Positions 1 to 56,443 of a DNA stretch of 64,000 bases are shown here, piece by piece. The notes beneath the pieces are model-generated. The model saw nothing but the letters and a program-made list of their open reading frames with translations, was not told where the DNA came from and searched no databases. Source of the DNA: Zanthoxylum bungeanum (taxonomy: Eukaryota > Streptophyta > Magnoliopsida > Sapindales > Rutaceae); assembly GCA_019454045.1 (NCBI GenBank), contig SKCR01023730.1, forward strand, positions 62,001 to 126,000, written 5' to 3'. The stretch's first letter is position 1. Each line of letters opens with the position of its first letter. Both the position numbers and the translations under genes were made by a program.

Positions 1-10
1 TTATCACCGG

Positions 11-1114
11 ATGCCAGAACCAAGCAATACCACATTTGCTCAACAGAACTCAATGAGGAGATGTGACATATGTAATGGTAACCACCATAGAGATTATTGC
101 GAATACAACTACCATACAGGGTGGCAGAGCTATCAAGATCCTTCATGGTATGACAAGCCATCACATTTCATAAAACCACATTTTCCATCTTATCCACCAT
201 CTACCTATGATCTTCATCAACAATCAGAACAATCAGAAAAAGATCAGTTGCTAAACATGCTCAAAGATGTGTTCAAAAAATGAGAAGAAAAGATGGATAC
301 AATGCTTGAAACATTCCAGAATCAACTCAAAAGCATTCAGAGTAACGCAGAATCCATACAGAGAATGACAGATCAAATCAGATAATTAACAGAAAACCAG
401 AACTACATACCTCAAGAACCAGTTTCAGATGACACTGATGAAGCCTTCGATTACCAATCATTTCACAATGACACTTCAACAGAGGAGGAGGCTGAGCAGT
501 ATCAACAACCAGAGGTATCAGTTCAGGAGCCCGAACTGGCAAAGTCTCGATTTGATTTTTATTATTCAGATTCTGACGAGGATGAAGCTGATCTATTTGT
601 ACCAACTGCACCAACAAATGAGGATGGAATTCGGTGTCCTCAAAATGAAGATCTTGGAGAATGCTTTGCACAAATGTTTGAAGAAGATCTTCCTGAATCA
701 TCCAATCCAGTCATATAAGAGGATGAAGACCTAAAATCTAACATTTCTTTTCATTCTCAGGTTGACAATTTTGAAACATGTATTTCACAGATGACAGATG
801 AAGAACTAAATACAGCAATTTTAAAAGACATCTGTAAAGAAAAGATGGAGCAAGAAGCAGAGCAAATGGAGGAGCAAATGTCTGACCTTAATAAAGATCC
901 AGAGCATTCAGGAAAAACATCGCTGTGTTGGGGAGTACAAATCAAAGATATCACCCAGAAGCTTAACAGAATGGAACTTCCATTCCCAGTCAAGCACCAT
1001 ACGAGACCTCCTAATTTTCTTTCTTTCTTTTCAGGAACCAAGAGAGCGATAAAGATTAAAAAGGTGGCACGAGCGCTGAATGAGACAAAACTCTTTTTGC
1101 CACTTTACCGTTAG
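11..1114 (+). pseudogene. Gag-like reading frame, broken by three stops
   Basis: One frame runs the whole length, interrupted only by stops at 281-283, 382-384 and 716-718; there are no frameshifts. Near its start is a Cys/His cluster, CDICNGNHHRDYC, resembling the nucleocapsid knuckle of Athila Gag although the spacing is not the classic CX2CX4HX4C. The rest is Gln-rich, then very acidic (Asp/Glu runs around 430-900), then a basic tail with IKIKKVARAL. This is likely the Gag C-terminal half of element A. The true start lies left of the window; the ATG at 11 is only the first one visible. The acidic and basic parts match no domain I recognise. An alternative is a captured sequence fused to Gag. 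Conservation of frame despite three stops suggests recent decay. Confidence 0.6.
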
Positions 1115-1260: not shown

Positions 1261-1641
1261 TGTCGTAATTTTTTTTCATATTTTGTGTGAACTTTTTAAT
1301 TTTGTGTGTTATTTTTGTAGGGAAAGGCACAAATGGAGCATTTTAAGACAGAAGGAATTGTGTTTGGCAATCAAAGATGAGAAACAATTCATTAGCAATG
1401 GCTGAATAAGGAATGAAATCTTGAGACACATCCTAATGAATTTATACTAAGCAAGTGGCATATTGCGTACACAATTCCGTTGCCTTAATTATTGCTTTGA
1501 TTCACTTTTCTGTTGTAATTATCTTTATTTTCGTAGACAAGATCCAGACTTTTTGACCTTTCACAATTTCTTTTGTTGTTTAGCTAACAAACGTCATCTG
1601 GAAGATACTAGTGCTATTATTACTCACCCTTTTTCAGGTAC

Positions 1642-1648
1642 TATAAAT
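1642..1648 (+). promoter_or_regulatory. TATA-like box before captured LOG
   Basis: CTATAAATTCAGCCCG lies 65 bp before the LOG start codon. The same box and spacing (66 bp) occur in element E (51030-51036, minus strand). Its retention in two diverged copies suggests that the captured segment includes the gene's own core promoter or 5' leader. Promoter activity is inferred only. Confidence 0.4.
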
Positions 1649-1706
1649 TCAGCCCGTCATTGCACTTTTGAAGGCATCCTAATTTGAGAAAGAAATACAT
1701 TAAAAA

Positions 1707-2359
1707 ATGGAACCCACTTCAAGAAGACGAGTTGAAAACATCTGCGTGTTTTGCGAGAGTAGTGTTGGTGTTAAGCCACAATACGTAGAAGCAGCACATG
1801 AATTGGGTCGAGTCTTAGCTGCAAGGAATATGCACTTAATATATGGCGGAGGCAATCTTGGATTAATGGGGATCGTTTCAAAGGCTGCACAGGAAGGAGG
1901 CAGTCACGTTTTGGGAATCATCCCAAAACCCTTCTCAGAGGCAAATCTTATTGAACCATCAAACGGAGAGGAACTAATCGTGCCAGGTATGTCTGAACGA
2001 CTGGTAGAAATGATTAACCGTGCTGATGCTTTTATTGCTTTGCCAGGTGGCTTGGGTACATTGGAGGAAAGTTTTATTGTACTATCTTGGGCGAACCTGA
2101 ACATACACCAGAAACCGCTTAGACTACTCAACGTTGACGGATTTTATGATTTTATTTGTGTGTTTCTTGATGATGCTCGGAGAAATGGGTTCGTGCAAAA
2201 CCTATGAAAGAACTCCTATTTACTGCTAGAACTGCTACGGATCTGATAGACCAACTCATAGCCTATGAACCACAAGTTGACCCTATCCTATCAAAAATAA
2301 ATTGGTCTGAGGACGATCGTGGTAAGAGACGTAGAATTAATCTGGATCTTAACCTTTAA
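1707..2359 (+). pseudogene. LOG-like: Captured LOG cytokinin-activating enzyme, one frameshift (copy 1)
   Basis: LOG enzymes (cytokinin riboside 5'-monophosphate phosphoribohydrolases) release free active cytokinin from its nucleotide in the cytosol. The frame from ATG 1707 shows the family core in order: ICVFCESS, the phosphate-binding YGGGNLGLMG, VLGIIPKP, MSERLVEM with the conserved Arg, PGGLGTLEE with the catalytic Glu, and LLNVDGFYDF. PGGLGT replaces the common PGGYGT. A stop at 2205-2207 follows a one-base deletion at 2195/2196; in the next frame the C-terminal third (MKELLFTART..., ending INLDLNL) stays open to TAA at 2357-2359. The full length would be about 217 residues, normal for LOG. 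There are no introns, unlike plant LOG genes, which points to capture from a spliced transcript. It lies inside element A, downstream of gag. About 88% identical to the 50318-50970 copy by eye over 160 residues. Confidence 0.88.
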
Positions 2360-12030: not shown

Positions 12031-12720
12031 TTGACATTCAATAATGTCTCTCATGATGCACCGGTCACGTTACCACCTTCTGGGTGGGACATGGGAGGAG
12101 AAATACCTCGAGCCAATAATGAGAATGAACAAACAATGGAGATAGGCCTATCAGGGAAGGTAATATTCCCAAAACCGCCACCACATATGACAAAGCACCT
12201 GCGCCCATTGTATGTTAAAGCAAAGGCCAATGGAATACCCATCACCAAAATGCTGATTGACAATGGAGAAGCCATTAATACGATCCCGGTTAGGATGCTG
12301 GGACGTTTGGCAAAGTCATAGGACGATCTCATCCCCACGGAATTGGTGTTAACAAGTTTCAATAGAGGAGCAATAACAGCTAAATGGGTCGTCCCACTAG
12401 ACTTGCAAGTGGGGAGTACTACCAAGACAGTAGTGTTCTTCGTCATAGACAGACCATCCACGTATAACATGCTTTTAGGACGAGATTGGATACATGGTAG
12501 CCGATGCATTCCTTCATTTCTTCATCAATGCCTAGTTTTCTGGAACCATAGAGATGAAGTAGAAATAGTACATGTCGACAACAAACCTTTCACTGCAGAG
12601 ACTAATTCGACTGAATTCTTCATGTATGAAGGAAATTACGGGCCGACCAGATTTCTGAATGAATGGGAGATTCGGCCATCGTGGCTCAAAATGACGAGCC
12701 ATACCCAGCAGGTCTGCTAA
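12031..12720 (+). pseudogene. T1 aspartic protease region
   Basis: Fragments in at least two frames read as a Tat protease. MLIDNGEAIN stands where MLID(T/S)GSAVN is usual, so the active-site Asp is kept but the following residues are changed. Downstream come FFVIDRPSTYNMLLGRDWIHG, the usual FVVD.PSSYNLLLGR.WIH block, and EVEIVHVDNKPF. A stop at 12319-12321 and a frame change split them. The enzyme would have cut the Gag-Pol polyprotein; it is inactive as it stands. Confidence 0.75.
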
Positions 12721-13181
12721 ACGATTTGTTCACGCAAACAAGACCAACCTCAGTGGTCTTTGGTGAGTCGACACATAACAGTTCAAATGAAGAAGAACAA
12801 CCTGAGTAAAGAACAAGCCGCACTTGCGGCTACCAAGGACAACTTAATGGCCTATGTAACAGAACGAGAGAATGAAACCGAAGCTCATGTTGTGATTTCA
12901 ACCTTAAGAGATAAATTATTGGCGCAACAAACAGAAGACAGAATAAGAGAGGCATCTGGGGTGGACTGATTGATGGAAGGAAGTCACAAAAGTTAACAAC
13001 CACGAGAAGAATAAGACTACGCTCTGAACAGACGGCATAAGGTGAGCGTCTCAAGGGCACATGATGTATTGGATGAGGTAAATCTGGGAAGTGAGGACGA
13101 TAGACGCATCACCTACATCAGCAAGGAACTAAAGGCTCAGGTACGCGAGAAATTGATTCATTTATATAAAATATAAAAAGA
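12721..13181 (+). other. T1 linker between protease and RT
   Basis: A decayed linker with no domain I recognise. Short pieces such as EEAALAATKDNL-like coding at 12760-12969 are rich in Glu and Lys, as expected for the spacer before the WDY.DMPGL block. Several stops are present. Confidence 0.4.
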
Positions 13182-13800
13182 TTGTTTTTTCGTTGGGACT
13201 ATAATGACATGTATGGTTTAGATAGAACGTTAGTAGAATATAGGTTGCCAATCATGCCAATCCATAGACCACATAAACAGCCTCCCCGGAGGTCTCCACC
13301 CAATGTCATGCCCGATATTAAAAAGGAGGTTGAACGCCTTTTGGAGCAAAGTTTATTAGAACGACCAGATATGTAGAATGGTTGTCAAATATCGTCCATG
13401 TTATGAAAAATAATGGAAAGATAAGAATCTGTGTAGACTTTAGGGATTTAAACCTAGCAACACCAAAAGTTCAATACCCCATGCCGACAGTAGATTCCCT
13501 AGTAGATTCCACGGCAGGGTATCAAGTATATTCTTTTATGGATGGATATGCGGGTTATAATCAGATCTACATCACCGAAAAAGATATACATAGAATGGCT
13601 TTTAGGTGCCCAGGTTTTTTAGGGTGTTATGAGTGGGTGGTAATGTCGTTCGGCCTAAAAAACGCTAGGACCACTTACTAGCGGGCCATGAATTTAATCT
13701 TTCATGATATGATCGGAATATGTGTAGAAGTCTATATGGACGATATAGTGGCTAAATCTGTAACCATGGAAGAACATTTTAGCCATTAGCAACAGCTTTT
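13182..13800 (+). pseudogene. T1 reverse transcriptase region
   Basis: The entry block WDYNDMYGLDRTLVEYRLPI (WDY.DMPGL in intact Tat elements) begins at about 13187. The palm follows: GKIRICVDFRDLN, YSFMDGYAGYNQI with the first catalytic Asp, MSFGLKNA, and the YMDD box near 13734-13745. Stops at 13374-13376, near 13679 and near 13787 and frame changes prevent translation. All three catalytic aspartates are still readable in fragments, so the decay is mild. Confidence 0.85.
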
Positions 13801-13806
13801 GAGCGA

Positions 13807-15118
13807 ATGAGAAAATTTAAACTAAAGTTGAACCCCGGCAAATGTGCTTTCGGGGTATGTGCAGGAAACGTCTTGGGTTTTCTAGTACACCAATGGGGGA
13901 TTGAAATTGATTCTAATAAATTTTGGGCAATCACTGAAGCCAAACCCCCCCGAAATAAAAAAGAGTTGCAAATATTTTTAGGACAAATTATTTTTTTAAG
14001 ACGGTTTGTCTCTAACTGTACAGGAAAAACTAAAGTGTTCTCGTCTCTGTTGAGACTAAAGGACAATGACGAATTCGTCTGGACCGAAGAACATCAAAAG
14101 GCTTTCGACAGCTTAAAGAAATATTTGTCACAGCCGCTAGTGATGGTACCCCATGTGCCAGGACGGCCAATGAAGTTGTACATATCGACTGAAGAATAAT
14201 CTATAGCTGGGATGATCGCGCAAGGCGATAACATGGGCGTCGAAAGAGCCATTTATTATATTAGTAGACAATTGCTGAATTATGAATGTAATTATTCTCC
14301 AATGGAAAAATTATATTTGGCTTTGTATTTTACATGTACTAAACTACGAGTCTATCTTAGGCCGAATACAGTGTACTTGATCACTAAAGTTAATATAATA
14401 AAGTACATGTTTTCTCGTCCTATCTTGCATCATAAAGTTGGTTTCTGGTCATTATCATTATCAGAATTTGACATACGGCATGAGCCCCAAAAGGCTATAA
14501 AAAATCAAGCCTTACCCAATTTCTTAGCTGACCACCCGTGCTTGAGTACCATCAGAGAAATAGAAATGGAATTAGACGAATGCAGTCTGAAACCATGGAT
14601 GATGTACTTTGATGGATCCAGCACAATGAAAGGAGCTGGATGGGGATAGTCTTAGTTAGCCCATTGGGAGAATCGTTCTGTTTCTTAATCCGATTGAACG
14701 AATATTGCACTAACAACCAGGCTGAATATGAAGCCTTGATATTTTAGTTAGAATACTCCTCAATATGGGAGTAACGCATGTGTCTGTTAATGAGACTTGC
14801 AACTAGTGATCCAACTGGTAACATGGACCTTTTAAATGCCAAATCCTATCAGTCATGGCACTATCGGGTGTAGCCAAAGAATTGGTGGATCAATTTGACC
14901 ATGCAGAGTTAGAACATATTCTGAGGGTGAAGAACGAAATGGCCAACAATTTGGCTCAAGCAGCTTCCGGATATAAGCATACAAACATAGATGGTATATA
15001 TAGAAGCGAAGAGGTGAAGTCAGCCCTGATGAGACGAAAGATGGAGACGGATGTCATGACTATTGAAATTGAAAAGGAAGACGATTGGAGGATCGAGATT
15101 AAAGAATTTCTAAAATAG
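13807..15118 (+). pseudogene. T1 RNase H and second (Tat-type) RNase H
   Basis: From 13807 the RT thumb and connection read KLNPGKCAFGV and GFLV, then FVWTEEHQKAFDSLK, the junction to the first RNase H (AIYYISRQLLNYECNYSPMEK). LPNFLADHPC marks the linker. PWMMYFDGSSTMKGAGWG (about 14590-14645) starts the extra RNase H that defines Tat elements, followed in another frame by NNQAEYEAL and later by HILRVKNEMANNLAQAAS. Stops at 14197-14199 and 14647-14649 and several frameshifts separate the blocks. Confidence 0.85.
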
Positions 15119-16353
15119 CCCGAAAGTGGGAAAGATCGAAGGCTGAAACTCGAAGCCTTGAATTACTAGGTATCATGAGATGTGTTGTATAAAAAACACC
15201 AAGACGGTCTGTTGTTGAACTGTGTAGGGCCATCAGAGTTCAAAACTATCATGGCCGAGATACATGAAGGAGTTCGTGGGGCTCACCGGACCGGAATAAA
15301 GATGAGATAGCTGATTATACGGAGTGGCTATTATTGGCCGAAGATGGGAGAATCATGCATCTCATAGGCCAAAGGATGTATTGCTTGCAAGAAGTATGGG
15401 CCCATTCAGTGGGCACCAGCAACCGAAATGATCCTTGTCATTAGACCATGGCCATTCATAGGATGGATGATAGATGTGATAGGGAAAATCTATCCTGCAT
15501 CCAGCAAGAGACACCTTCATTATCGTCACCACAGATTTCTTTACCAAATGGGTGGAAGCTATTCCGGTCGTAGAGATCTCTCAAGAGCAAATCATCAAGT
15601 TCATAAAAGAGCATATTGTTCACCGATTCGATAGACCGCAAACAATAATGGTGGACCATGGCACTTCATTAAATTATGAGAAGGTAAAAGGTTTCCTGGC
15701 CGAATACGAGATCCGATTAGTGAACACCACTCCGTATTACCCTCAGTCAAATGGTCAGGTAGAGTCATCCAATAAAACCCTTAAAGGGTTGATTCAGAAG
15801 ATGGTGACGGACAACGCCAGCGGATGGGATGAATGTCTGAGTTAGGCTCTATGGCCATATAGGACGTCGCTATGAACGAGTACTTCGATCACGCCATTTC
15901 AATTAGTATATGGTCAAGAGGTCGTACTACCAATAGAAATTAATATCGAATCCACTAGGGTGATGTTGCAAAAAGATTTGACAAAGAAGACTACAATGAA
16001 GCAATGATCCAGAATTTTTTGGAACTGGACGACATTAATGCGATGTGATAATCATCTAGAAGCACAAAAGAGGAAAATAGCCGAGGATATAATCAGAGAG
16101 TCATGGCTAAATCATTCAAGAAATGCGAATTAGTATGGAAACTATATTGCCATTTGGTACTAAAGATCCTGTATATGGCAAATGGTCGCCTAATTGGGAA
16201 GGTCCATTCGAGGTAAAAGATGTGTTGCCGAATGGGGCTTATCATTTAAAAGATTTAAACGGAAGGGTGCACGCTAGAGGGATAAATGGCAAATATTTGA
16301 AAAAGTATATGCCCTCACTATGGGAGCATGAAAATGTAATGTCTTTGCAATAA
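15119..16353 (+). pseudogene. T1 integrase region
   Basis: A zinc-binding HHCC set is readable in pieces: EIHEGVRGAHRTG for the two His, and KGCIACKKYG for the two Cys, split by stops. The core has WMIDVIGKI (first acidic residue), MVDHGTSLN (second Asp) and PYYPQSNGQVESSNKTLK with the Glu. At 16123-16353 comes the C-terminal GPF module: KWSPNWEGPFEVKDVLPNGA, ending near YLKKYMPS. The enzyme would insert the cDNA into the genome; here it is broken by multiple stops and shifts. About 85 bp of non-coding T1 sequence separates it from element C. Confidence 0.85.
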
Positions 16354-31016: not shown

Positions 31017-33105
31017 TGTTAGTGTTCCTAGAACATGCCAAGGATCTAATAAGCATGAAAACATGTTCATAAATTCAAAATAAATTGCGGAATTACTTAC
31101 ATTGAATGGATTTGAGCTTTTAAAATTTTGAGAAGAAGATCCAAGATCCAAGATGCTTCCTTTGTTGATTCCAAGCTTTGAGTTTAAGATCTCCAAGATC
31201 TTTCCTTTGTTGATTCCAAGCTTTAAGTGATGATTCCAACTCTTGAAGTAGTTTCCCTATCACCTTAGTTGATTTCTCTAAGTGCTAGCTTTGTTGATTT
31301 TGCAACAAAATCAAAGAGAGGAAGACAAGAAGCTCACGCCCATTTGCAAGGATGAAGCTCACGCCCATTATGAGATGTATTAGGGTTTTTTATTTCCAAA
31401 ATGTGTTACAAGTGTGTTTAGTGAAGTGAGAGAGAAGGCCTTTTGGTTTTGTTAAAGGGTTTTACCCTTTTACCCAAAACCATGTAGTTGGGGTAATTTG
31501 GTTTCACCTAAACCAAGTGGTTGGAAAGTAAGTGGTTTTGGCATAAATGCCAACCACTTTCCAACCACCACTTCACATGTTTGACATGTGTGAAGTGGGC
31601 CCCACCATTTTGAATTCAAAACTCAAAATGTCTCTACGAACATTTGTCGCGGCGCGGTTCCGTTTAATCCGATTAAATGAACTTTCGTCGCTAAATAATT
31701 AAATCTAATTTAATTAAATGACGATGCCTCGCAAATATATTACGAACGTCGTTTATGAATTAATTCTAAATTAATTCGTTCGTTCGTATTAAAGTCCGAC
31801 TTTAATTTCGTAACGAAATCCAATTCATATTAATAAATCCGATATATTAATTTTAGCCCATACGAATAAATTAAATAGAAAAATCAAATTTAACTATTAA
31901 ATTTATTTTACCGATTAATTCCAAATTAATCACGTTCTCTCTTTTCCGAACACATTTAATCCCAGATTAAATAATACCTCAATTAATTCCAGATTAATTT
32001 TCTCCATCTTAATTAATCCAGATTAATTTTCTCTCTTAATTAATCCCAGATTAATTCTAATTTAAATCAACTGTCATCGTGAATCTTGGGAAACGACCTA
32101 AGAGATCCCTGGATATGTTGGCAGTAAATACGGTCATCGGATTATCCGAATACGTGCGTACCTCGTACCATGTGCTTACCGATTTACAAGACACGGTTGG
32201 CTTCTAGCAAAGCACCGTGCCGACCCAATTCTCCAGAAATATTCTTACTGGAATATATAATCTATGTCAGGCGTAGTATACGTAGTATTGCGTATTGCGA
32301 TCCAGTATCGAATGTCATGTGCTAGGCGTGGGGCTGGAACTGTGTATGCCCCGTACGAAGCACATGTCGGATGTCTGGTAACTAGTCTCTATAATCGGAT
32401 ATACATGACCTTGTCATAATACCCCGATGGCTGCAGTACTTAAGAGTACTAATACCGTATCCTACGTGACATCATCTCCACTATGACTGGAGTGACACTT
32501 CCGTCTTGACATCACACCCAATACTCTACGATTCTCAATATACCCAGTATTGGCGTACACAGAACCGGTTAAAGCCCTGGACGACCGCAACTAGAGTATA
32601 TCGATTGTCGCAAGTATTAGCGGTGCAAGTCTCAGGTTAAGACCAAATACATCTACCCTGATTTCGGACTTCCATAGACACATAGTCAGACTACCAATGG
32701 AATTCCGAGGGGTCTATCCAGAACGAAGCTATTTTCCGTACCATCGGTAAAACACAACCTCCTATTACACTTGCATGAGTATCATATACCCAAATATATG
32801 AGAACTATGCCGTTATGATCTCACATAATACGCACAAGTGTAATACTAGTCTATTCCGCATTATCGATGTCCAGTCTCGATAATACTACGACTAGGGATA
32901 TTTAATGATTAATCCTTCGTAGACTGATACTGTCTCATATCATCTCAATCCAGGAACTAATCATAAGGACCTCCTATCTATTTATACATCAAGGTTATCT
33001 AATCAAAAATGATAAGAGTGCAATCTCATTTGTCACATAATTAATTTGTACAACAACACCATGATCTGTACAAATAGTGACGCTATGGGTCATAACTGTC
33101 CAACA
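31017..33105 (-). repeat. 3' LTR of D1
   Basis: 2089 bp, from ATGACCCATAGCG...TGTTGGACAG (minus-strand start at 33105) to GGAACACTAACA at 31017. About 97% like 56444-58536 by eye over the first 100 bases. It carries the TTAATC-TGG-GATTAA inverted repeats at about 31945-32056. Confidence 0.92.
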
Positions 33106-33120
33106 ATCTCCCACTTGGCC
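33106..33120 (-). other. Polypurine tract of D1
   Basis: GGCCAAGTGGGAGAT on the minus strand, directly before the 3' LTR. Confidence 0.85.
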
Positions 33121-35100
33121 TATAGCCATTCACTCGAGTGTCTTACACCCAAAATATGTATGGTTCGCTCAAACTGCTGAGGAAAGGCTTTCGTCAGCGG
33201 ATTTGTATGATTATCGTCTGATGCGATTTATTCGATCATCACATCGCGATGATGTATGATTCGAACGAATCAGATGAATAGAAGAAGTATATATCTGGAT
33301 CCTTGATGAGACCATTAATTCTTTAGCCTGTGCTGACGCCTAGCTCAGCTGCAAACAGCACTATATCTAATCTAATTAGATTTGATATTGACCCAGATGG
33401 CTTCTATTGCTGCCTCAGCTGCAGCAATAACCCGCATTTGTTGCTTATTCGGAAACATCATCTTGCTTGGAAGATTTCCAGCTCACTGTACCGTTATTCA
33501 AACTGTATAGTACCGTTATTGTTATCGGTTAGGAAACTTACAGTAGTGATCCCAGTCATTTCAAGTTCTAATTCTCCATAGTTTAAGACATCATCCTTAG
33601 TTCTCTAAGATACTAACGGATGTTCTTCATATCAATCCAGTGACTATCACTTGGATTGACCTGTTTGTGACTCCATATGCTCAAAGCGTATGAGACACCA
33701 GATCATATACATTTTTCAATGTACGAGTTCTCAGAGAGTGTTGACAACTTTAAATCTATCCCAGTAGATCTTTATTCCTAGAATAAAGGTTGTTTCTCCC
33801 AAGAATTCTACGGAGAATTTTCATGAAAGCCAAGCTTTCACCGATTGTAATATGGGAATATCATTTCCAAGAAATGACATATCATCATTATTTAGGACAT
33901 CATTGTCAGTGCTCCCACTAACCTCCTTATATACACAATCATATTCGTTTTGAATCAAATCATACACCATTATGATTACATCAAAATGATATTCCAAGAA
34001 CCCAATGCTTACTTCAATCCATACATGGATCGAATAACCTGCAAACCTTGTTTGCTAGTTTTGGTACGACAAAACCGTCAGGATGTTATAAACATCCTCC
34101 AAAGAGGTTTCCATTTAAGGAAATCGATTTTGACGTTCAGCTGCCATATTTCACGAATGAAACATGTAGCATCAGCAAGCATTATCCAAATGGATTTAAC
34201 GTGGCAACAGGTAAAAGATTTCGTTGTAATCAACACAATGTTGATAACGATACCTTTCCGCTACAAGCCTAGCTTAGTACGTTGGTATGTTGTCTTCCAT
34301 GTATGTCTTCCTTGAAGACTTATATAGTACAATAGGCACAATACCTTGTGGTACAACAACTAGTGTCCAAACATAGTTGTTATACATGGAATCCATTTCG
34401 GACTCATGGCACTTTGCCATAATTGGGAGTCGATACCTTGTATCACTTCCTCACACGTAGTCAGTTCGTATTCCTCAATAAGATTGACATATTTATGAGG
34501 TGAGATCAGAAACCCATACCCCAGGTTGTTTTCTGACTCTCTCCGACCTACGCGGTTCTTGTGTATTCGAAGATTACTGGTACAGTTTCATCCTTGATGA
34601 ACTGTTTGTGTTCCATTAAGGACTTGGTGCCTTGAACAGTATAACTCTGATTTTCATCGAGTTTTACTATCCTCCCACTTGTCATTGCATGTCGGTATTC
34701 CTCTTAGGAAAACCGCATGGTGAGCAACAATTACATTGTTCTCAAGTGAGTTGTATAAGTATTATACTTTGGTTTCCCTAAGATAACCTATAATTGGCAC
34801 TTATCCAATTTGGGTTCTAGTTTGGTATCATCCCAACATATGTCTAACATTCCCAAATCATCAGGAGTGAGAAAGCCCAGTTTTTTTCCTGTTCATATCT
34901 AATATGAAATATGTCAAACAGATTTTCATGGAACCTTATTCAAAATAAGTATTGCACTGTTAAATGCTTATCCCTTTGAAGGAAAATGGTAGCTCAGAGC
35001 GACTCATGATTAACCTTATCATGTCCAACAAAATTAGGTTTCTCCGTTCGGACACACCGTCAAATTGACGTGTTCCGGGAGGAATCCTCATTGAAGAATA
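33121..35100 (-). pseudogene. Copia pol relic of D1
   Basis: RNase H and RT remnants in the same order as F and D2. On the minus strand, sequence for SWKSSKQD and the EAAIEAIW-like block lies near 33400-33490; the RT entry lies near 34200-34450. The TTTGAATAAC stop is at about 33490-33499. Stops and indels are dense; the open frames 33950-34315 and 34048-34272 lie on the wrong strand and are accidental. Confidence 0.75.
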
Positions 35101-36129
35101 CTATACTTTCAAGTATATGAGAAACTTATTGTTTAAGTATTTCCATTATGGTCAAACCGTGAGTGTTTTAATACTTTAGCCGATCTTTTTTGTTTACTTC
35201 GTGTCGAAACTCTAAAAGTTTCCGATTTATGTTCTTCAAAAGAAACACAACCAGAAAGCGATGCCACATCCATAAAGGTCACGAAATATTCATATCCACC
35301 TTAGCCTAGCTAGACATGGGCCCACTTACGTCACTATGAACAAGGCTAATAGATCGGTGGCACTTATACTTTTACCAAGAAAGGTGTTTAGGGTACTTTA
35401 CCTAATAAACTAGATTCGTAGACATCATTTGAATGGAATCAAATCTGTCCTTGTATTCACTCTTAAAAAGTGTGGATATACGAGTCTTGTTTAATGTGTC
35501 CCAGACAACACTGCCACAAATATGTCTTATCTGATCAAATCCGTTTGAGCTATTTGTTCGTCCATATTATATGTTTGAGATTTATTTATATTCAAAATAT
35601 AAATATGTTATTCACATCTAATGTGTTTATCTCAATATCATTTTATAAATAAAACACTTTAGTGTTCTAGAATATTAAAGGTATATCGCAATGAGTTATA
35701 TACGATATAGATATATTATTTCTAGTCAAACTAGTTACATTTTAACAGTTTCCTAATTTAAGTACATACACGAAGGGTAGTTCCTAAACTTAGGTATATA
35801 CGATTGAAACAGCGACTGTCATCCCGTTTCTGATTCGCAGATTAATCTCATCTGAAGTCAGTATCCTGCTCACAGCGATTCATGCACATCAATGCATATT
35901 TATGTATCCACACTAAGTATTTAAAATCCAATTTTAATACTAGTAGTGAAACATATTTATACAAACATATTGAAGTCAGGCCTTGCTCGTCTTCAATTCT
36001 TCATGTCTGCTTTGTCCCTACGGCAGTCTGCTTCAATGACCCCGTTTGCCACAATTTTAGGCAGGAATCTTGGGGATTATGTCATTTATCTTCTAGAAGA
36101 TTATAAGATTTTGCCTTTGCCCTTTTCAT
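35101..36129 (-). other. D1 internal non-coding stretch, left of D2
   Basis: Matches 40250-41240 of D2 closely. It includes integrase-side remnants and an AT-rich run with ATTCAAAATATAAAT. No gene is seen. It ends at CCTTTTCAT, where D2 is inserted. Confidence 0.6.
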
Positions 36130-38205: not shown

Positions 38206-38220
38206 ATCTCCCACTTGGCC
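38206..38220 (-). other. Polypurine tract of D2
   Basis: GGCCAAGTGGGAGAT on the minus strand next to the 3' LTR; identical to that of D1. Confidence 0.85.
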
Positions 38221-44270: not shown

Positions 44271-44284
44271 GGCTCTTGATACCA
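44271..44284 (-). other. Primer binding site of D2
   Basis: TGGTATCAAGAGCC on the minus strand, next to the 5' LTR; close to the plant iMet tRNA complement, with one extra A. Confidence 0.8.
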
Positions 44285-44285
44285 T

Positions 44286-49121: not shown

Positions 49122-49126
49122 GAACC

Positions 49127-50149
49127 TGTTTATTTATAGCTTTTAGTAATTAATTTTCGCTTTTGCATTTTCTTTTCTTTACCTTTCAGTTTTTACTTTC
49201 CGCAATTTACTTTTACGCACAATACTTTTCTTTCTTTAATTTTCAGTTTTTACTTTTCAGTAATTTACTTTCAGCAATTTACTTTTCAGTAATTTACTTT
49301 TCAGTAATTTACTTTCAGCAATTTACTTTCAGCATTTACTTTTCAGTATTTCATTTTCAGTATTTTACTTTATGTCTTTTATTTTATTTACGTTTTTTTA
49401 CCACCTGTAAATATGTGTCGTAACTAAGCCAGTTATCTGGGGTTGTGATGAAATCCAATATCACCGGTTTATAAGTGGTTAATTATAGTTTGGGTAATAT
49501 AAAGGTTTATTTATTGAGTCTTAATCTTAATGCTTTTTCATTAACTGGCCATTAATAAAATTGAACTGGTAAACTTAAAATGAACTAGACATAGGGATTT
49601 TAGGTTTCAGCCTTAGACTCAATAGCCCACGATCTTCCTTGAGGATAGATAACCCTTTAATAGATTTCCTTACAGGATAGGAATATACCTGTCGGGCGGG
49701 GGTAGCCATAATTGGGACTTAAACTTAATGAATCCAGATAATTTGGTTGACATAGACATATGGTTCAATTGGGTTAAACTGGGTATCTGTGTCTGACCAT
49801 CGACAGAGGCTTACACATAATTTAGTGTTCCAGGTTAATAAATCAATATATTACCCAACTTTAAGATAACCACTTCATCTTTAAAATGATATTGGAAGAA
49901 ATCACAACCCTAGATAGTTTTTAATATTGAATTTTCTTAAAACATATTTTCGACAATTTTATTTACTTGCTTTTAAATTTAGAATCGTCACCATTTCAAA
50001 TCAATCAATCAAATAATCTGTTAGATACTAGTAATCATTTGACCTCATAAAATTAATAGTTTTGATATTAAGTCCTCGTGGGATCGATATTTTTATACTA
50101 CTTGAACGATACGTGCGCTTGCGTTATACGTGTGTGTTTATGCCGGTCA
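49127..50149 (+). repeat. Truncated, inverted LTR of E
   Basis: 1023 bp that correspond to 54724-55800 of the right LTR read in the opposite direction. It starts TGTTTATTTATAGC and ends TGCCGGTCA. The start lies about 80 bp downstream of the TATA box position in the full LTR, so the piece is close to R-U5. It carries a 14-bp-type array (TTTTCAGTAATTTAC, about 49180-49370). Confidence 0.88.
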
Positions 50150-50155
50150 AGTTTT

Positions 50156-50173
50156 TGGCGCCGTTGCCGGGGA
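50156..50173 (+). other. Inverted second tRNA-Asp primer site of E
   Basis: TGGCGCCGTTGCCGGGGA, an exact complement of the 3' end of plant tRNA-Asp as I know it. It points rightwards into the 3' end of E, opposite to the functional site at 54700-54717. Confidence 0.88.
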
Positions 50174-50317
50174 GTTAAAAATAACATACAAGCTAAAAAC
50201 AAGGTACTGATCAACTAATTCCCTCCCCCAAACCTAAATGAGACATTGTCCCCATGTATTAAACAGTAAAAGGAGAGTTAAGAAGGTCGTACCTGGTTAG
50301 CTGAAATCTACAGGAAA

Positions 50318-50970
50318 TTAAAGGTTAAGATCCAGATTAATCCGACACCTCTTACCACGATCATCCTCGGACCAATTTATCTTTGAAAGGATAGGGTCAA
50401 CTTGTGGTTCATAAGCTATGAGTTGATCTATTAGATCTGGAGCAGTTTTGGCAGTAAAGAGGAGTTCTTTCATAGGTTTTGACACGAACCCATTCTCCGG
50501 GCATCATCAAGAAACACACAAAGAAAATCATAAAATCCATCAACATTGAGCAATCCAAACGGTTTCTGGTGTATGTTAAGGTTCGCCCAAGATAGAACTA
50601 TAAAAATTTCCTCCAATGTACCCAAACCACCTGGCAAAGCGATAAAAGCATCAGCACGGTTAATCATTTCTACCAGTCGTTCAGACATACCTGACACGAT
50701 CAGTTCCTCGCCGTTTGATGATCCAATAAGATTTGCCTCTGCCAAGGGTTTTGGAATGATTCCCAAAACATGAATGCCTCCTTCCTGTACAGCCCTTGAA
50801 ACGATCCCCATAAGTCCAAGATTTCCTCCGCCATATACTAAGTGCATATTCCTTGCAGCTAAGACTCGACCCAATTCTTGTGATGCTTCTATGTATTGTG
50901 GTTTAGTACCAACACTACTACCGCAAAACACACAGATGTTCTCAACTCGTCTTCTTGAAGTGCCTTCCAT
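50318..50970 (-). pseudogene. LOG-like: Captured LOG cytokinin-activating enzyme, one frameshift (copy 2)
   Basis: Same gene as 1707-2359. From the ATG at 50970 the frame shows ICVFCGSS (the usual form; copy 1 has Glu for Gly), YGGGNLGLMG, VLGIIPKP, MSERLVEM, PGGLGTLEE and LLNVDGFYDF, then ends early at 50470 after a one-base deletion in the A run at about 50493. The C-terminal part stays open in another frame (MKELLFTAKT..., INLDLNL) to TAA at 50318-50320. This copy keeps the base that copy 1 has lost, and the reverse, so both decayed separately. It lies in E downstream of the Cys-rich frame, with a TATA-like box at 51030-51036 and the same 5' leader as copy 1. If translated as is, it would lack the last 50 or so residues. 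Confidence 0.88.
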
Positions 50971-51029
50971 TTTTTATATGTATTTCTTTCTCAACTCTGG
51001 ATGTATTCAGAAGTGCAATGACGGGCTGA

Positions 51030-51036: not shown

Positions 51037-51237
51037 GTTCCTGAAAAGGGTGAGTAAAAATAGCACAAGTATCTTCCAAAGGACGATTGTTAGCTAAACA
51101 ACAAAAGAAATCGTGAAAGGTCAAAAGGTCTGGATCCTGTCGGAGAAAAAAAAAAAAAACAACAAAACAAATCACAATTATTAAGAAAAGACAAAGAGAT
51201 ATAATATTTACAAGAAAAGTAACTGCTTGAATGACGT

Positions 51238-51726
51238 CTATGCGTCAGGGACAAGCTTCCCATCCAATTTTCTTATAAATTGGCAAACAGGGTCTTTTTG
51301 AGTCAGATTCCCGAGACTTAACAGTTGTCTTTCCTTTTGGAATTGTGTATGTAATTTGCGAATGGCTATATGAACATATCCACTAGGATGCGTCTTAAGA
51401 GTCGAAGATATATCATCTAAAGACTCCTTACTCAAGCCATCCCTAATGAATTTAATTTTGTCTTCGCGATTATCAGACACCATTCCTAAAGAACGACAAC
51501 GAGTATTACAATTCCAACGTGCACATTTGAAACAAACACCCATTTTCTTAGCTCTACGTTTCTTTGCATATGTGCTTCTTCCACAACCAGGCAGATGTGA
51601 AATAAAAGAGTCAGAAGACTCACCTGCCAATCGGACTCGTGCTTCAATTACCCAACGAATATCATTAGGCACACCATGGATCGTCAGTAGTCTCATCCGT
51701 TCCAAGCGAGCTTTGTAAACTTTCAT
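51238..51726 (-). CDS. 162-residue Cys-rich basic protein of unknown function
   Basis: Intact frame of 162 codons between gag-pro and LOG in element E. I do not recognise the family. Visible features are a basic patch STYAKKRRAKKMG followed by a Cys cluster VCFKCARWNCNTRC (CX2CX4CX3C, possibly zinc-binding) near residues 60-75, then a charged helical C-terminal half (IRDGLSKESLDD, LHTQFQKERQLL). An AG after a T-rich stretch (TTTAATTTTTGCAG, about 51803) lies just upstream, so it might be expressed from a spliced transcript, as proposed for the third gene of Athila elements. A 19-codon frame (ATG about 51789) ends in TGATG overlapping this start. Element A lacks this frame. It could be an env-position gene or a captured gene. 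Confidence 0.5.
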   Translation of the reverse strand: MKVYKARLERMRLLTIHGVPNDIRWVIEARVRLAGESSDSFISHLPGCGRSTYAKKRRAKKMGVCFKCARWNCNTRCRSLGMVSDNREDKIKFIRDGLSKESLDDISSTLKTHPSGYVHIAIRKLHTQFQKERQLLSLGNLTQKDPVCQFIRKLDGKLVPDA

Positions 51727-51923
51727 CAGAGATTTTTGAGGAGAGAAGGAAATTGCTTGCGAAGATTTGCGAGAGCTTCTTCCATATTGAAATGACTAAA
51801 CCTGCAAAAATTAAACACACAAAAATAAAACACATCAGATCACAATATATACACAAATTGCATGGGTTGCCTCCCTGCTAGCGCTAAGTTTAAAGTCGTC
51901 AGCCAGACTTGACTTCTCGAACG

Positions 51924-53261
51924 TTAGGCTAGATCTGAAAGTGTGACACTTTCTTTTTGTCGCTCAAATGATTCTCCCCAGTAGTGCTTGACACGCTTGT
52001 TTTTAACCTTGAAAGTTTTGTTAGCGTCAGGATCATGTATCACAATGGCTCTATTTGGTAAAACTTTGGTGATCACAAATGGACCTGACCACCGTGATTT
52101 TGGCTTCCATGGGAAGAATTTCACCCTTGATTTGTTTAACAGTACCTTCTGCTCTGGTTCCAGTTGTATGCGCACTAACTTCTCATCATGTCTTTTCTTG
52201 CCCTTTTCTTTGTACAATTTGGCATCTTCAAAAGGCTGATTGTGAAATTCCTCCAATTCGTTGAGCTGGTGGAACTTTTTCTCTTCTGTTGCTTGTAGAG
52301 CAAGAATTGGCTCTTTCAGTGCAAAAGATGCTTTATCTTTAGGCTCCACAGGCAATTGACATGTTTTAAGTTTGTCAGTAGAACTTAGTCTTTCATCGGA
52401 GTTCTGAATGGTACTGTGTATCACATCGAGTTTGAAACATTCCTCCTTCTTTTCATCATCTGGGAAATTCATGGCCTTGAAAACATTGAATGTTACTTCT
52501 TGGTCCTGTACCCTCATGGTTAGTTCTCCTTTTTGTACATCAATAATGGTTCGACCTGTAGCCAAGAATGGTCTCCCAAGGATGATTGGCACGTCTGCGT
52601 CTTCCTCCATATCAAGGACAATAAAATCTGCTGGGAAAATGAATTTGTCAACCTTGACCAGCACATCCTCAACTACGCCTCTTGGAAATACGAGCGTTCT
52701 ATCAACAAGTTGCAGTGAGACTGAAGTTGGCATTGTTTCTCCAATCTGTAATTTCCTGAAAATAGAAAAAGGCATCAAGTTAACACTAGCACCTAAATCA
52801 CATAAAGCCTTACCAAAGTTATGTTCTCCTATGACGCAAGGAACAGTGAAACTGCCAGGATCTTTCAACTTCGGGGGAAGTTTCCTCTGAATGATAGCAC
52901 TGCATTCTTCTGTTAATGCTACTGTCTCGTAATCTCCCAATCTCCGCTTTCGTGAAAGAATATCTTTCATGAATTTGGCATAGGTGGGCATTTTTTCCAA
53001 CGCTTCTGCAAATGGAATGTTGATATGTAGATTTTTGAAGATCTCCAGAAACCGGGAAAATTGTTTGTCCAATTTATTTTTCTGAAGACGTTGAGGAAAA
53101 GGTGGAGGTGGAGTGATCTGTTCTTTTTCCTTTGCTTCTTTTTCCTCCATTTGTTGCTTTGTTTCTTTTGGAACTTCCTCAGCAGTTGAATTGACTCCAA
53201 CATCTTTGTTGATTTCAGTACCGCTCTTTAACATGATGGCATGACATTGTTCCTTCCCCAT
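51924..53261 (-). CDS. Gag-protease joined to integrase C-terminal tail, 445 codons
   Basis: One uninterrupted frame. Residues 1-60 are a Lys/Glu/Pro-rich Gag end. Residues 65-140 are the pre-protease block (FLEIFKNLHINIPFAEAL, ILSRKRRLGDYETV, SAIIQRKLPPKLKDPGSF). The aspartic protease runs to about residue 270, with ALCDLGASVNLMP (Athila elements use DLGA) and IILGRPFLATGRTIIDV. From about residue 330 it jumps to the end of integrase: LNELEEFHNQPFEDAKLYKE, then SRWSGPFVITKVLPNRA, the GPF module, and VKHYWGE. RT, RNase H and the integrase catalytic core are absent, though the join is in frame. The first residues overlap the preceding gag in another frame, so the true Gag start is upstream and a frameshift separates them. 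Confidence 0.85.
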   Translation of the reverse strand: MGKEQCHAIMLKSGTEINKDVGVNSTAEEVPKETKQQMEEKEAKEKEQITPPPPFPQRLQKNKLDKQFSRFLEIFKNLHINIPFAEALEKMPTYAKFMKDILSRKRRLGDYETVALTEECSAIIQRKLPPKLKDPGSFTVPCVIGEHNFGKALCDLGASVNLMPFSIFRKLQIGETMPTSVSLQLVDRTLVFPRGVVEDVLVKVDKFIFPADFIVLDMEEDADVPIILGRPFLATGRTIIDVQKGELTMRVQDQEVTFNVFKAMNFPDDEKKEECFKLDVIHSTIQNSDERLSSTDKLKTCQLPVEPKDKASFALKEPILALQATEEKKFHQLNELEEFHNQPFEDAKLYKEKGKKRHDEKLVRIQLEPEQKVLLNKSRVKFFPWKPKSRWSGPFVITKVLPNRAIVIHDPDANKTFKVKNKRVKHYWGESFERQKESVTLSDLA

Positions 53262-54526
53262 GTTTCTTGGATTTGGCTCTGTGTTGCTAGGAAGGTTACT
53301 GGCGGTCTGTAACTCTGAGCATTTGCCAGTTGTCCCATTTGATTCTCCAGTGCTTTAATAGAAGCAGATTGACTTTGAATTAATGTTGCTTGGGATTGAA
53401 ACATAGCATCGTATTTTGCTTCTTGCTTTTTGAACATCTCTGCAAACCATTCTTTCATTTCTGGTTCTTTTTCATGCTCCTGGCCTTTGTTCTGCTGTTG
53501 GAATCCAAGTGGTGGATAGTTTTGATGTTGGCCTGAATTGTTGCTCCATGCTAAATTAGGATGATTCCTCCACCCTGGGTTGTAGGTGTTGGAATATGGA
53601 TTGTTCCCCTATCTGTTGAAATTGTTGACATAATTCACCGCCTCTTCATGTTGGTTTGACTCTAGTGCTCCTCCATATGGTGAACTTGTGGTTCCAGCGA
53701 TGTTCACAACTTGTGTGCTAAGTGTTTCTAGACATTTACATATCTGATCCAGCCTGGTATTCACTGCTGTGTTTGCTCCAACTTCATAGATTCCTGCAAT
53801 TCTTTGGATCATGCTCCTTTCTGTTGGCCACAACGAATTGTTGTTGGCCATTTCTTCGATTAGGTCCCAGGCTTTATCTTCTCCTTTTGCCATCAAGGCT
53901 CCTCCAGCAACAGCATCGACTGTGGTTCTCATTATTCCAGAAAGCCCATTATAGAATGTTTGGACTTGAAGCCATTTTGGAATCTCATGGTGAGGACATT
54001 TCTGGAGTAAATCTTTGTACCTTTCCCAAGCTTCGCAGAGGGATTCTGAATCTTGTTGTACAAAGGATGTGATGTCATTCCTCAGATTTCCGGTTCTGGC
54101 TGATGGAAAGTATTTTGCAAGAAATTTGGTGGCTAAAGTGTTCCAAGTTGTGATAGAACCTGCTGGTAGTGAATGTAGCCACGCTTTAGCTCTGTCCTTC
54201 AAGGAGTATGGAAAAACACGCAGTCTCATTGCTTCTTCAGCTTCTCGGTTGTAATTAAAAGTGCCGCAAACTTCCAGGAAGTTACAGATGTGGGCATTAG
54301 GTTCTTCAGTTGGATTCCCCCCAAATTGAACTGACTGCTGAATCATCTGAATGCATGTTTTGATGTCACATGCATTTGCTGGTAAGGGAGGAAGTACAAT
54401 ACAGGAAATGAGTCTGTCAACCATCGGAATGGTTCTGTCTCGAATGGGAATTGGTGGTGCAACGTTCAAAGGTTCAGGTTCCATATTGACTAAAACTCCT
54501 TGGACTTCTCGCCTTTCCCTTCTCAA
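53262..54526 (-). pseudogene. Gag of element E, one stop and one frameshift
   Basis: From the ATG at 54526, 305 codons read as an Athila-type Gag: VQFGGNPTEEPNAHICNFLEVC, MRLRVFPYSLKDRAKAWLHSLP (capsid core), EAWERYKDLLQKCPHHEIP, VQTFYNGL and AVAGGALMAK. A stop at about 53609 interrupts the familiar NPYSNTYNPGWRNHPN block, which continues in the same frame, followed by KEWFAEMFKKQEAKYDAMFQ (coiled coil) and ALENQMGQLANA. A one-base shift near 53280 then leads into the gag-pro frame. The protein would form the virus-like particle in the cytoplasm. Only these two lesions stand between Gag and protease, so the decay is recent. Confidence 0.85.
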
Positions 54527-54699
54527 CTGTCTGATAGTTCTTTCAATTTATGGGTCAAGCGATCGGAGTTCAAAGCTTTTGGTTCGTCTCATGTAGTTTC
54601 TGAGAACCTGAAACACAAGAAAATAACGACAATAAGTAAAAAGAAATTAGATACAAGTAACGTATCTAACCCCTAAATTAATAGTGAAAGATAAATAAG
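54527..54699 (-). other. Leader of element E
   Basis: About 170 bp between primer site and gag; no gene or clear structure. Confidence 0.5.
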
Positions 54700-54717
54700 T
54701 CCCCGGCAACGGCGCCA
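54700..54717 (-). other. tRNA-Asp primer binding site of E
   Basis: TGGCGCCGTTGCCGGGGA on the minus strand, six bases after the LTR end CCGGTCA. Complementary to the 3' end of tRNA-Asp, the primer I know for Athila-like elements. Confidence 0.9.
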
Positions 54718-54723
54718 AAAACT

Positions 54724-56400
54724 TGACCGGCGTAAACACACACGTATAACGCAAGCGCACGTATCGTTCAAGTAGTATAAAAATATCGATCCCACGAGGA
54801 CTTAATATCAAAACTATTAATTTTATGAGGTCAAATGGTTACTAGTATCTAACAGATTGTTTGATTGATTGATTTGAAATGGTGACGATTCTAAATTTAA
54901 AAGCAAGTAAATGAAATTGTTGAAAATAGTTTTAAGAAAATTTCATATTAAAAACTATCTAGGGTTGTGATTTCTTCCAATATCATTTTAAAGATGAAGT
55001 GGTTATCTTAAAGTTGGGTAATATATTGATTTATTAACCTGGAACACTAAATTATGTGTAAGCCTCTGTCGATGGTCAGACACAAATACCCAGTTTAACC
55101 CAATTGAACCATATGTCTATGTCAACCAATTATCTGGATTCATTAAGTTTAAGTCCCAATTATGGCTACCCCCGCCCGACAGGTATATTCCTATCCTGTA
55201 AGGAAATCTATTAAATGGTTATCTATCCTCAAGGAAGATCGTGGACTATTGAGTCTAAGGCTGAAACCTAAAATCCCTATGTCTAGTTCATTTTAGATTT
55301 ACCATATCAGTTTTATTAATGGCTAGTTAATGAAAAAGCATTAAGTTTAAGACTCAATAAATAAATCTTTATATTACCCAAGCTATAATCTAACCCCTTA
55401 TAAACCGGTGATATTGGATTTCATCACAACCCCAGATAACTGGCTTAGTTACGACATATATTTACGGGTAGTAAAAAAAACTGAAATAAAATAAAAGACA
55501 TAAAGTAAAATACTGAAAATGAAATACTGAAAAGTAAATGCTGAAAGTAAATGCTGAAATTAAATACTGAAAATTAAATGCTTAAAGTAAATTACTGAAA
55601 GTAAATTGCTGAAAGTAAATTACTGAAAAGTAAATTGCTGAAAAGTAAATTGCTGAAAGTAAATTACTGAAAAGTAAAAACTGAAAATTAAAGAAAGAAA
55701 AGTACTGTGCGTAAAAGTAAATTGCGGAAAGTAAAAACTGAAAAGTAAAGAAAAGAAAATGCGAAAGCAAAAATTAATTACTAAAAGCTATAAATAAACA
55801 AACAAGATACAATCTTCTTAGTATTCTTAAGGAATTCCTTAGAAGAAAGTATGAATTTTACAAATGAAATGGCTTGGTATTTATAGGCAAAATTTTGCCA
55901 CCATCAAATCATCAATCATTTCTCCACCAATCCATTATTAATTTCTCCACTAATTACTCCACCAAATCCATAATTGCTCCACTAATTGCTTATCTTGTTT
56001 GGTGGTGATTTGATAATTTTTATTAATTATTTATTAATTAATATTTTGCTTTGAAAATGATTGATAATGACTTTTAATAATTACACTCCACACACGTCTG
56101 GATGGTTCATCAATTTCGGTCATGATATCATCAGAATTTGAAAATATTTTCTCTTTCAAAATTGTAGATCTTTGAGTCTTCTTTAATTTGGAACTTGAAT
56201 CAGCTCAATCTGATATCTAAGTAAAACGTTATTCCCAAAATACGACAGATGCACTTCGTTCTAAATGATTTCATTAAGTCCCAATATTATTTTATCTGCA
56301 AAATAAACTAAAACACATCAAAACGTTCATCAAACCCGAGAAACTAAACAAAATATTAAGTTAAAGGGGCGGTAAATATTGATATATTTTCCGCTCATCA
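54724..56400 (-). repeat. Full LTR of element E
   Basis: 1677 bp on the minus strand from TGATGAGCGGAAAATATATC (56400) to CGCCGGTCA (54724). TATA-like GCCTATAAATACC lies near 55876-55888. A 14-bp-type array of TTTACTTTCAGCAA variants lies at about 55490-55740. Its first 60 bp match the LTR starts at 3637 and 28924. Confidence 0.9.
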
Positions 56401-56428: not shown

Positions 56429-56442
56429 GGCTCTTGATACCA
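56429..56442 (-). other. Primer binding site of D1
   Basis: TGGTATCAAGAGCC on the minus strand next to D1's 5' LTR; identical to that of D2. Confidence 0.8.
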
Positions 56443-56443
56443 T

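What the first reader, a model, noticed from the sequence alone, without database searches (positions are those of the whole stretch)
1707..2359. A plant LOG cytokinin-activation gene captured by an Athila-like retrotransposon family
Two elements of one family (A and E, opposite strands, different genomic hosts) each carry an intronless LOG frame in the same place downstream of gag or gag-pro, with the same leader. Plant LOG genes have several introns, so capture from a spliced RNA is likely. The N-terminal 160 residues are about 88% identical between the copies and keep the GGG..GLMG, MSER and PGG.GTLEE motifs. A retrotransposon carrying a hormone-activating enzyme could alter the growth state of its host cell or simply be a passenger.
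Basis: partly seen in the sequence, partly recalled or inferred. Interest (0 to 1): 0.92.

Follow-up and report, generated by a model that had tools for sequence, protein, structure and literature searches.

The report
Retrotransposons carrying a LOG-type enzyme gene
A very abundant plant retrotransposon family carries an intronless, still-selected relative of the cytokinin-activating enzyme LOG, often beside a gene resembling a plant-virus nucleic-acid-binding protein, so the element may act on the growth state of its host cell.

Summary
In detail: window copies A (1707-2207 +) and E (50470-50973 -) are intronless LOG frames inside LTR (gypsy-type) elements; both are broken, their last ~50 residues lying in another frame. 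LOG domains in Gypsy elements are already in print (Citrus, poplar: PMC9289625, section read). New here: (1) scale, about 25,000 leader copies in a 3.96-Gb assembly; 40 of 40 leader-picked loci carry LOG, 13 with an unbroken frame. (2) Not a passenger: dN/dS falls from 1.1 (3 closest pairs) to 0.18 (106 distant pairs); single-copy variants 45 S/131 N, shared ones 46 S/22 N, p=3e-9. (3) Element LOGs keep catalytic R99/E122 but lose the canonical prenyl-pocket trio H97/K100/E125 (50 of 51 tailed homologues) and share a basic-LxLxL tail. (4) Gag-carrying copies hold a second selected ORF above Pfam cut-offs for carlavirus nucleic-acid-binding proteins. (5) A-type elements without gag-pol still keep LOG under selection. 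Best reading: an element-serving phosphoribohydrolase that shifts host-cell state; cytokinin as substrate is unproven.

The parts
1707..2207 (+). LOG frame of element A (166 aa, then stop)
   Evidence: PF03641 E 2.7e-31; TIGR00730 149.2 bits
2204..2356 (+). C-terminal ~51 residues of A's LOG, in another frame, ending in a basic stretch and LDLNL
   Evidence: tblastn
1645..1706 (+). LOG leader of A, with the 23-base word used for genome counts
1531..1540 (+). A-type 3'-splice-site-like stretch upstream of the LOG leader (tcgtag / acaag)
   Evidence: read, aligned; splicing not shown
2..1111 (+). A-type ORF remnants (2-280, 386-715, 719-1111): zinc-knuckle-like and acidic; no Pfam family at or above its cut-off
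   Evidence: same arrangement in L009 and L012
3637..5619 (+). 3' LTR of element A
   Evidence: TGATAAGTGG... to GCCGGTCA; matches E's LTR over 109 and 843 columns at about 80%
50470..50973 (-). LOG frame of element E
   Evidence: PF03641 E 3.3e-31
50321..50473 (-). C-terminal ~51 residues of E's LOG, in another frame
   Evidence: tblastn
51137..51160 (-). pyrimidine tract and ACAG before the LOG leader of E (3'-splice-site-like)
   Evidence: read; splicing not shown
51238..51795 (-). NABP-like frame (carlavirus-type nucleic-acid-binding protein); start of the protein lies in another frame in this copy
   Evidence: PF05515 28 bits (cut-off 23), PF01623 25.8 bits (cut-off 20.9); full-length 182-aa relatives
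51802..51810 (-). TTTTTGCAG just before the NABP start (3'-splice-site-like)
   Evidence: read; TTTTT[GA]CAG in 27 of 31 upstream stretches by my count
51924..53354 (-). pro-like frame fused to an integrase-end-like part (476 aa); RT, RNase H and integrase core missing
   Evidence: no Pfam hit; in fuller copies 2.6 kb with RT/RNase H/integrase lies between the two parts
53609..54547 (-). gag of E
   Evidence: PF03732 E 1.5e-23
54703..54718 (-). primer binding site TTGGCGCCGTTGCCGG
54724..56400 (-). 5' LTR of E
   Evidence: TGATGAGCGG... to GCCGGTCA; self-match
49127..50149 (+). inverted, truncated LTR abutting the 3' side of E, with its own PBS at 50155
   Evidence: 94.1% to 55701-54696 in opposite orientation

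Best explanation
A LOG-type gene was captured long ago, through spliced RNA, by a Ty3/gypsy (probably Athila-lineage) element. It became a permanent accessory gene placed between integrase and the 3' LTR, and it is kept by selection acting on the element. Shown: LTR-element context, intronless state, very high copy number, purifying selection, conserved catalytic residues and LOG fold, conserved tail, altered pocket, and a second conserved ORF (NABP-like) upstream. Inferred: LOG and NABP are made from spliced subgenomic RNAs (conserved pyrimidine-AG stretches lie before both); the LOG protein hydrolyses an N6-substituted AMP (a cytokinin nucleotide, or a related one because the pocket is changed) to the free base, pushing the expressing cell towards a dividing, permissive state; the NABP-like protein damps RNA silencing or acts in the nucleus as its viral relatives do; the basic-LxLxL tail sends LOG to the nucleus and/or to co-repressors. 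Both would favour new insertions in cells that reach the germ line.
For: Copy number: 10,327 places of the 23-base leader word (reversed control 1), 17,104 of the E-type and 7,933 of the A-type 22-base words (controls 0). LOG present in 40 of 40 leader-picked loci, 13 without gap or stop. Selection: dN/dS 0.261 over 780 pairs of 40 copies (38 leader-picked plus A and E; 2 partial loci dropped), 1.10 in the 3 closest pairs, 0.181 in 106 pairs at dS 0.2-0.3; regression slope 0.024 (-0.048 to 0.099); forward control frames 0.746 and 1.722; singletons 45 S/131 N against 46 S/22 N for variants in at least 4 copies, Fisher 3e-9; the same in A-type and E-type apart (p 1.4e-6 and 2.5e-5). Catalytic pair R99/E122 kept in 99 of 103 proteins and in 39 of 42 and 40 of 42 genome rows (residue roles from PMC4979012 passages). 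Fold: AF2 pLDDT 85.2, pTM 0.82; top Foldseek hit 2a33, TM 0.94 by target. Tail: LxLxL in 37 of 40 genome copies and in 51 of 56 members of the group, none of the 47 others. Intronless against a split canonical LOG. Fuller copies encode RT, RNase H and integrase. LTR pairs K2P 0.020-0.028 in 7 of 9 loci, 0.045 and 0.070 in two: recent activity. NABP: PF05515/PF01623 above cut-off in 6 of 8 NABP proteins scanned for PF05515 and 7 of 8 for PF01623; dN/dS 0.414 over 23 distinct copies; passages of PMC12172455 describe viral relatives as silencing suppressors and one as a transcription factor inducing hyperplasia.
Against: No expression or enzyme data. The pocket residues tied to the prenyl group are replaced (50 of 51 tailed proteins lack the H/K/E trio; 41 of 41 readable genome copies have S/L/I), so cytokinin nucleotides may not be the substrate. 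The windows' LOGs miss the NCBIfam equivalog cut-off for cytokinin phosphoribohydrolase widely (about 111 against 300 bits). LOG distances between A- and E-types equal those within types (dS 0.156 against 0.165 and 0.139), so A-types may take LOG from E-types by recombination and the selection seen in A may be borrowed. One reverse control frame also gave a low ratio (0.388; the others 1.051 and 2.076). Only 3 pairs stand behind the value 1.1. Many copies (27 of 40) are broken. The AF2 model of NABP is poor (pLDDT 63.6, pTM 0.31), so its kinship to the viral proteins rests on profile matches alone.
Confidence: 0.5

Rival explanations
1. Altered-substrate enzyme: the element LOG is still a nucleotide phosphoribohydrolase but no longer a cytokinin enzyme; it acts on another N6-substituted or plain nucleotide (for example N6-methyl-AMP or AMP) and tunes nucleotide pools or RNA-modification by-products.
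For: K100 and E125 of the prenyl pocket are replaced in 50 of 51 tailed proteins and H97 in 45 of 51, while R99/E122 and the PGGxGTxxE core stay; S, L, I at these places are the only residues read in 41 of 41 readable genome copies, under purifying selection.
Against: No substrate was tested; pocket roles come from passages on a bacterial LOG (PMC4979012), where they are themselves proposals from superposition.
Confidence: 0.25
2. Non-enzymatic role: the folded LOG serves as a scaffold whose conserved basic-LxLxL tail recruits TOPLESS-type co-repressors or brings the element's products into the nucleus.
For: Tail conserved in 51 of 56 group members and absent from the 47 other proteins; tail dN/dS 0.238, as in the core; tail disordered in the model (residues 203-217). 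That LxLxL is the EAR-type motif is recalled.
Against: The catalytic pair would not need to be kept; it is (99 of 103).
Confidence: 0.15
3. Passenger: LOG is a transduced fragment copied along without function.
For: 27 of 40 leader-picked copies are broken; the 3 closest pairs show dN/dS 1.1.
Against: Shared against single-copy variants 46 S/22 N against 45 S/131 N, p 3e-9; distant pairs 0.18; a group of related tailed LOGs in other plants.
Confidence: 0.04
4. Host gene duplication: the copies are segmental duplicates of a host LOG that happen to lie among retrotransposons.
For: None found.
Against: The copies share leader and downstream element sequence at 90%, occur about 25,000 times, sit between LTR pairs in 9 of the 20 ten-kb loci, and are intronless unlike L098.
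Confidence: 0.01

Closest known systems
LOG/YgdH-domain Gypsy elements of Citrus and Populus (PMC9289625, section read, citing Steinbauerova et al. 2011; that paper not held; its wording 'two Athila-like elements with similarities to LOGL4' is recalled)
   Same: LOG domain as an accessory domain of plant Gypsy LTR elements
   Different: Those reports, as far as I saw them, give presence only. Poplar proteins called LOGL10 (P0031 and others) fall in the same group, so they are probably the same gene.
Canonical plant LOG (AtLOG3, PDB 2a33)
   Same: Fold, PGGxGTxxE, catalytic Arg and Glu
   Different: About 46% identity in the structure alignment; prenyl-pocket H/K/E replaced; extra basic-LxLxL tail; no introns
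Carlavirus-type nucleic-acid-binding / cysteine-rich proteins (PF05515, PF01623)
   Same: Basic stretch followed by a Cys-rich finger; Pfam scores above cut-off
   Different: Longer (182 aa), encoded in LTR elements of many plants, no virus genome context; profile match covers only the middle of the protein
Orchid Gypsy elements with an AlkB-type m6A demethylase (PMC9289625, abstract and section read)
   Same: Gypsy element carrying a host-like enzyme domain
   Different: Different enzyme; tested in vitro there, not here

Membership tests
LOG (TIGR00730 / type-I LOG) | Score above the TIGR00730 cut-off | tested here: met
   149.2 and 153.5 bits against 96.35
LOG (TIGR00730 / type-I LOG) | PGGxGTxxE with catalytic Arg99/Glu122 | tested here: met
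   Kept in 99 of 103 proteins; genome rows 39 of 42 (R) and 40 of 42 (E)
LOG (TIGR00730 / type-I LOG) | Prenyl-pocket residues His97, Lys100, Glu125 shared by AtLOG3, OsLOG, CpLOG, CgLOG (PMC4979012) | tested here: not met
   S/L/I in 41 of 41 readable genome copies; Met96 and Trp129 kept
LOG (TIGR00730 / type-I LOG) | NCBIfam equivalog for cytokinin phosphoribohydrolase (NF058542) | tested here: not met
   110.5 and 111.1 bits against 300, on the truncated window frames
LOG (TIGR00730 / type-I LOG) | Cytokinin riboside 5'-monophosphate hydrolysis | not testable with these tools
   needs protein
Ty3/gypsy LTR retrotransposon | RT, RNase H, integrase in that order; LTR pairs; PBS | tested here: met
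   909-aa frame in L027 with RVT_1, RT_RNaseH, Integrase_H2C2, rve; LTR pairs in 9 of 20 loci; PBS
Athila lineage | No additional (archaeal-type) RNase H, unlike Tat (PMC6317226 passages) | tested here: met
   No further RNase H family found in the 909-aa frame of L027; one copy examined in full
Athila lineage | RT/RH/INT phylogenetic position | not tested
   No reference set was aligned
Carlavirus nucleic-acid-binding protein family | PF05515 / PF01623 above the gathering score | tested here: met
   Window frame 28.0/23 and 25.8/20.9; L022 frame 26.9 and 29.6; two distant plant relatives (P0167, P0190) fall below one or both cut-offs
Carlavirus nucleic-acid-binding protein family | Shared fold | tested here: inconclusive
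   AF2 pLDDT 63.6, pTM 0.31; no fold search made

The most novel reading that the evidence does not exclude
A plant retrotransposon lineage has evolved a two-gene host-state cassette: a retuned LOG (new substrate pocket, nuclear/co-repressor tail) that changes the proliferation or identity of the expressing cell, and a carlavirus-type nucleic-acid-binding protein that blunts silencing or reprograms transcription. The cassette is expressed by splicing and is shared by recombination between gag-pol-carrying and gag-pol-less elements, much as small DNA viruses push cells into a permissive state.
Probability: 0.25. Interest if true: 0.88.

Novelty: new variant of a known kind. Interest (0 to 1): 0.68.

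Why it matters
If the enzyme works, tens of thousands of element copies hold the means to change a growth hormone (or a related nucleotide base) in the very cells where the element is active. That would make testable how transposons pick or create permissive cells. It also warns annotators: many 'LOG' or 'LOGL' models in plant genomes (the poplar LOGL10 proteins fall in this group) are probably transposon genes. The link to carlavirus-type proteins bears on where those viral suppressors come from, or where the elements got theirs.

Tried and rejected
Passenger and segmental-duplication readings: rejected (see rivals). Viral contigs: scan with the NABP alignment gave 21 pattern stretches, none confirmed; scan with the LOG alignment gave 19 distant LOG loci, 27-59% identical in their best segments, not followed. 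Host LOG: two protein searches were swamped by element copies; a 36-aa query gave two places at 77% identity, one of which was read (L098). Fold search of the NABP model was not made because the model is poor. The tail-only protein search returned 12 hits, all unnamed ENA entries, so it did not help to name other plants. The plant behind G000 was not identified. Literature; no paper seen there describes selection, the pocket change or an LxLxL tail of an element LOG, or a carlavirus-type ORF in LTR elements. One search was too broad (11,695 papers; the 12 listed hold neither LOGL4 nor LOGL10), most subscription journals are not held, and the key 2011 paper was not held.

Dropped rows: of the first 42 exact leader matches up to contig C390, two near contig ends were not fetched; L056 and L078 (141 and 376 aligned bases) were left out of dN/dS. 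L009-L028 and L029-L038 were picked by profile score and are biased to intact frames; some are near-duplicates (L010/L011, L018/L019). 11 of the 20 ten-kb loci could not be typed A or E by the leader word.

Full report
What is there. The window is G000:C20136:62001-126000 of a 3.96-Gb assembly in 51,709 contigs. Two LOG frames lie in it, A at 1707-2207 (+) and E at 50470-50973 (-), both PF03641 at E about 3e-31. In both the conserved C-terminus lies in another frame, so both are broken copies. They share 998 columns of leader, LOG and downstream sequence at 90%.

The elements. E reads on the minus strand LTR 56400-54724, PBS, gag (PF03732), a pro-like frame fused to an integrase-type end, an NABP-like frame, LOG; it then abuts an inverted, truncated LTR at 50149. 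Fuller copies elsewhere keep 2.6 kb between the two parts of that fused frame; in L027 one 909-aa frame holds RT, RNase H and integrase. Of 20 ten-kb loci picked by LOG profile score, 18 carry at least part of NABP and the two others (L009, L012) match window A upstream. In this A-type the stretch from PBS to LOG encodes only a zinc-knuckle-like, acidic ORF without a Pfam family at its cut-off. LTR pairs in 9 loci differ by K2P 0.020-0.028 in seven and 0.045 and 0.070 in two. With a recalled rate of 0.7-1.3e-8 per site and year that is roughly 1 to 5 million years; these loci are biased to intact LOG.

Numbers. The 23-base leader word occurs at 10,327 places with up to 2 mismatches (reversed control 1). 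Longer-standing variants of the upstream stretch give 17,104 (E-type) and 7,933 (A-type) places, controls 0; the two words differ by three bases where they overlap, so slight double counting is possible, and the assembly may hold two haplotypes. Forty loci picked by exact leader match, blind to the coding state, carry LOG in 40 of 40, with 13 free of gap and stop.

Selection. NG86 over 40 copies (38 of the 40 leader-picked plus A and E): mean dN/dS 0.261; 1.10 for the 3 pairs under dS 0.03; 0.456, 0.305, 0.243, 0.181 in rising dS bins; slope 0.024 (bootstrap -0.048 to 0.099), intercept 0.037. This is what neutral decay after insertion plus purifying selection between insertions would give. Control frames: forward 0.746 and 1.722; reverse 1.051, 0.388, 2.076 (the 0.388 frame is low too). 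Variants seen once are 45 S/131 N; those in at least 4 copies 46 S/22 N; Fisher 3e-9. A-type (22 copies) and E-type (14 copies) show it apart; 4 copies were unassigned. LOG distances do not separate the types (0.156 between, 0.165 and 0.139 within), so recombination of the LOG module between types is likely and selection in A may be inherited from E. NABP, on 23 distinct profile-picked copies, gives 0.414 with control frames 0.932 and 0.958.

What the LOG looks like. AF2 of the relative P0001: pLDDT 85.2, pTM 0.82, residues 203-217 disordered; best PDB match AtLOG3 2a33. In 103 proteins of at least 195 aa, R99 and E122 are both kept in 99. H97/K100/E125 are all kept in 48; only 1 of these 48 (P0042) has the tail, and 50 of the 51 tailed proteins lack the trio. 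In the genome copies these places read S, L, I in 41 of 41 readable rows. Residue roles are from passages of PMC4979012. A tree from the core only (tail cut off) puts all 51 tailed proteins and 5 tail-less ones (short or altered ends) on one side of a branch with support 100/98, and 47 proteins on the other (the label still needs 6 changes because of those 5). Nine proteins, six of them named Xanthoceras sorbifolium, have the canonical pocket and lie beside the canonical LOGs; some end in KKRRLA or KRRRLD, as if the tail arose in steps (inference). A canonical LOG of the same genome, L098, aligns in three separated blocks, with breaks inside the stretch that is continuous in the elements, and keeps H, K and E. 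This fits capture from spliced RNA, long ago.

The neighbour. The NABP frame passes PF05515 and PF01623 cut-offs in the window. Its 182-aa relatives number 368 at E <= 1e-3; the 120 listed include Xanthoceras, Populus, Acer, Orobanche and Rhamnella entries. Passages of PMC12172455 say that viral proteins of this type suppress silencing and that chrysanthemum virus B p12 acts as a transcription factor inducing hyperplasia. Whether virus or element had the protein first is open.

Expression. TTTTT[GA]CAG stands just before the NABP start in 27 of 31 stretches (my count), and ACAG|GATC or TTTTCAG|G before LOG in 32 and 38 of 42. These resemble 3' splice sites; no RNA was seen. The nearest LOG homologues are short unnamed ENA entries; whether they are transcripts is unknown.

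Verdict. The kind is known (PMC9289625). The evidence that it is a selected element gene with altered pocket and tail, joined to a carlavirus-type ORF and kept even without gag-pol, makes it a new variant worth bench work.

Noticed in passing
G000:C23952:418412-429796: Seven NABP matches on one strand at about 1.86-kb spacing: a tandem array of the NABP module.
   Followed up: no
L014 (3170-7142), L018 and L019: LOG-LTR units repeated in tandem at about 3.5-3.6 kb spacing, 97-98% alike.
   Followed up: no
window 49127-50177: Element E is bounded by two LTRs in opposite orientation; the left one is truncated and joined through its PBS to E's interior, as if by strand switching or recombination.
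   Followed up: partly
window 31017-41243: A 5.1-kb unit repeated in tandem at 93% identity, with further diverged copies at 41238-49126 and 56441-58536.
   Followed up: no
window 12322-15845: Frames like protease, RNase H and integrase of another gypsy-type element; one weak Pfam hit (RT_RNaseH_2, below cut-off).
   Followed up: no
P0007, P0008: Homologues whose frame runs on upstream into the element leader (TSAIITHPF in P0007), across the second splice-like CAG, so the leader is conserved in another source.
   Followed up: no
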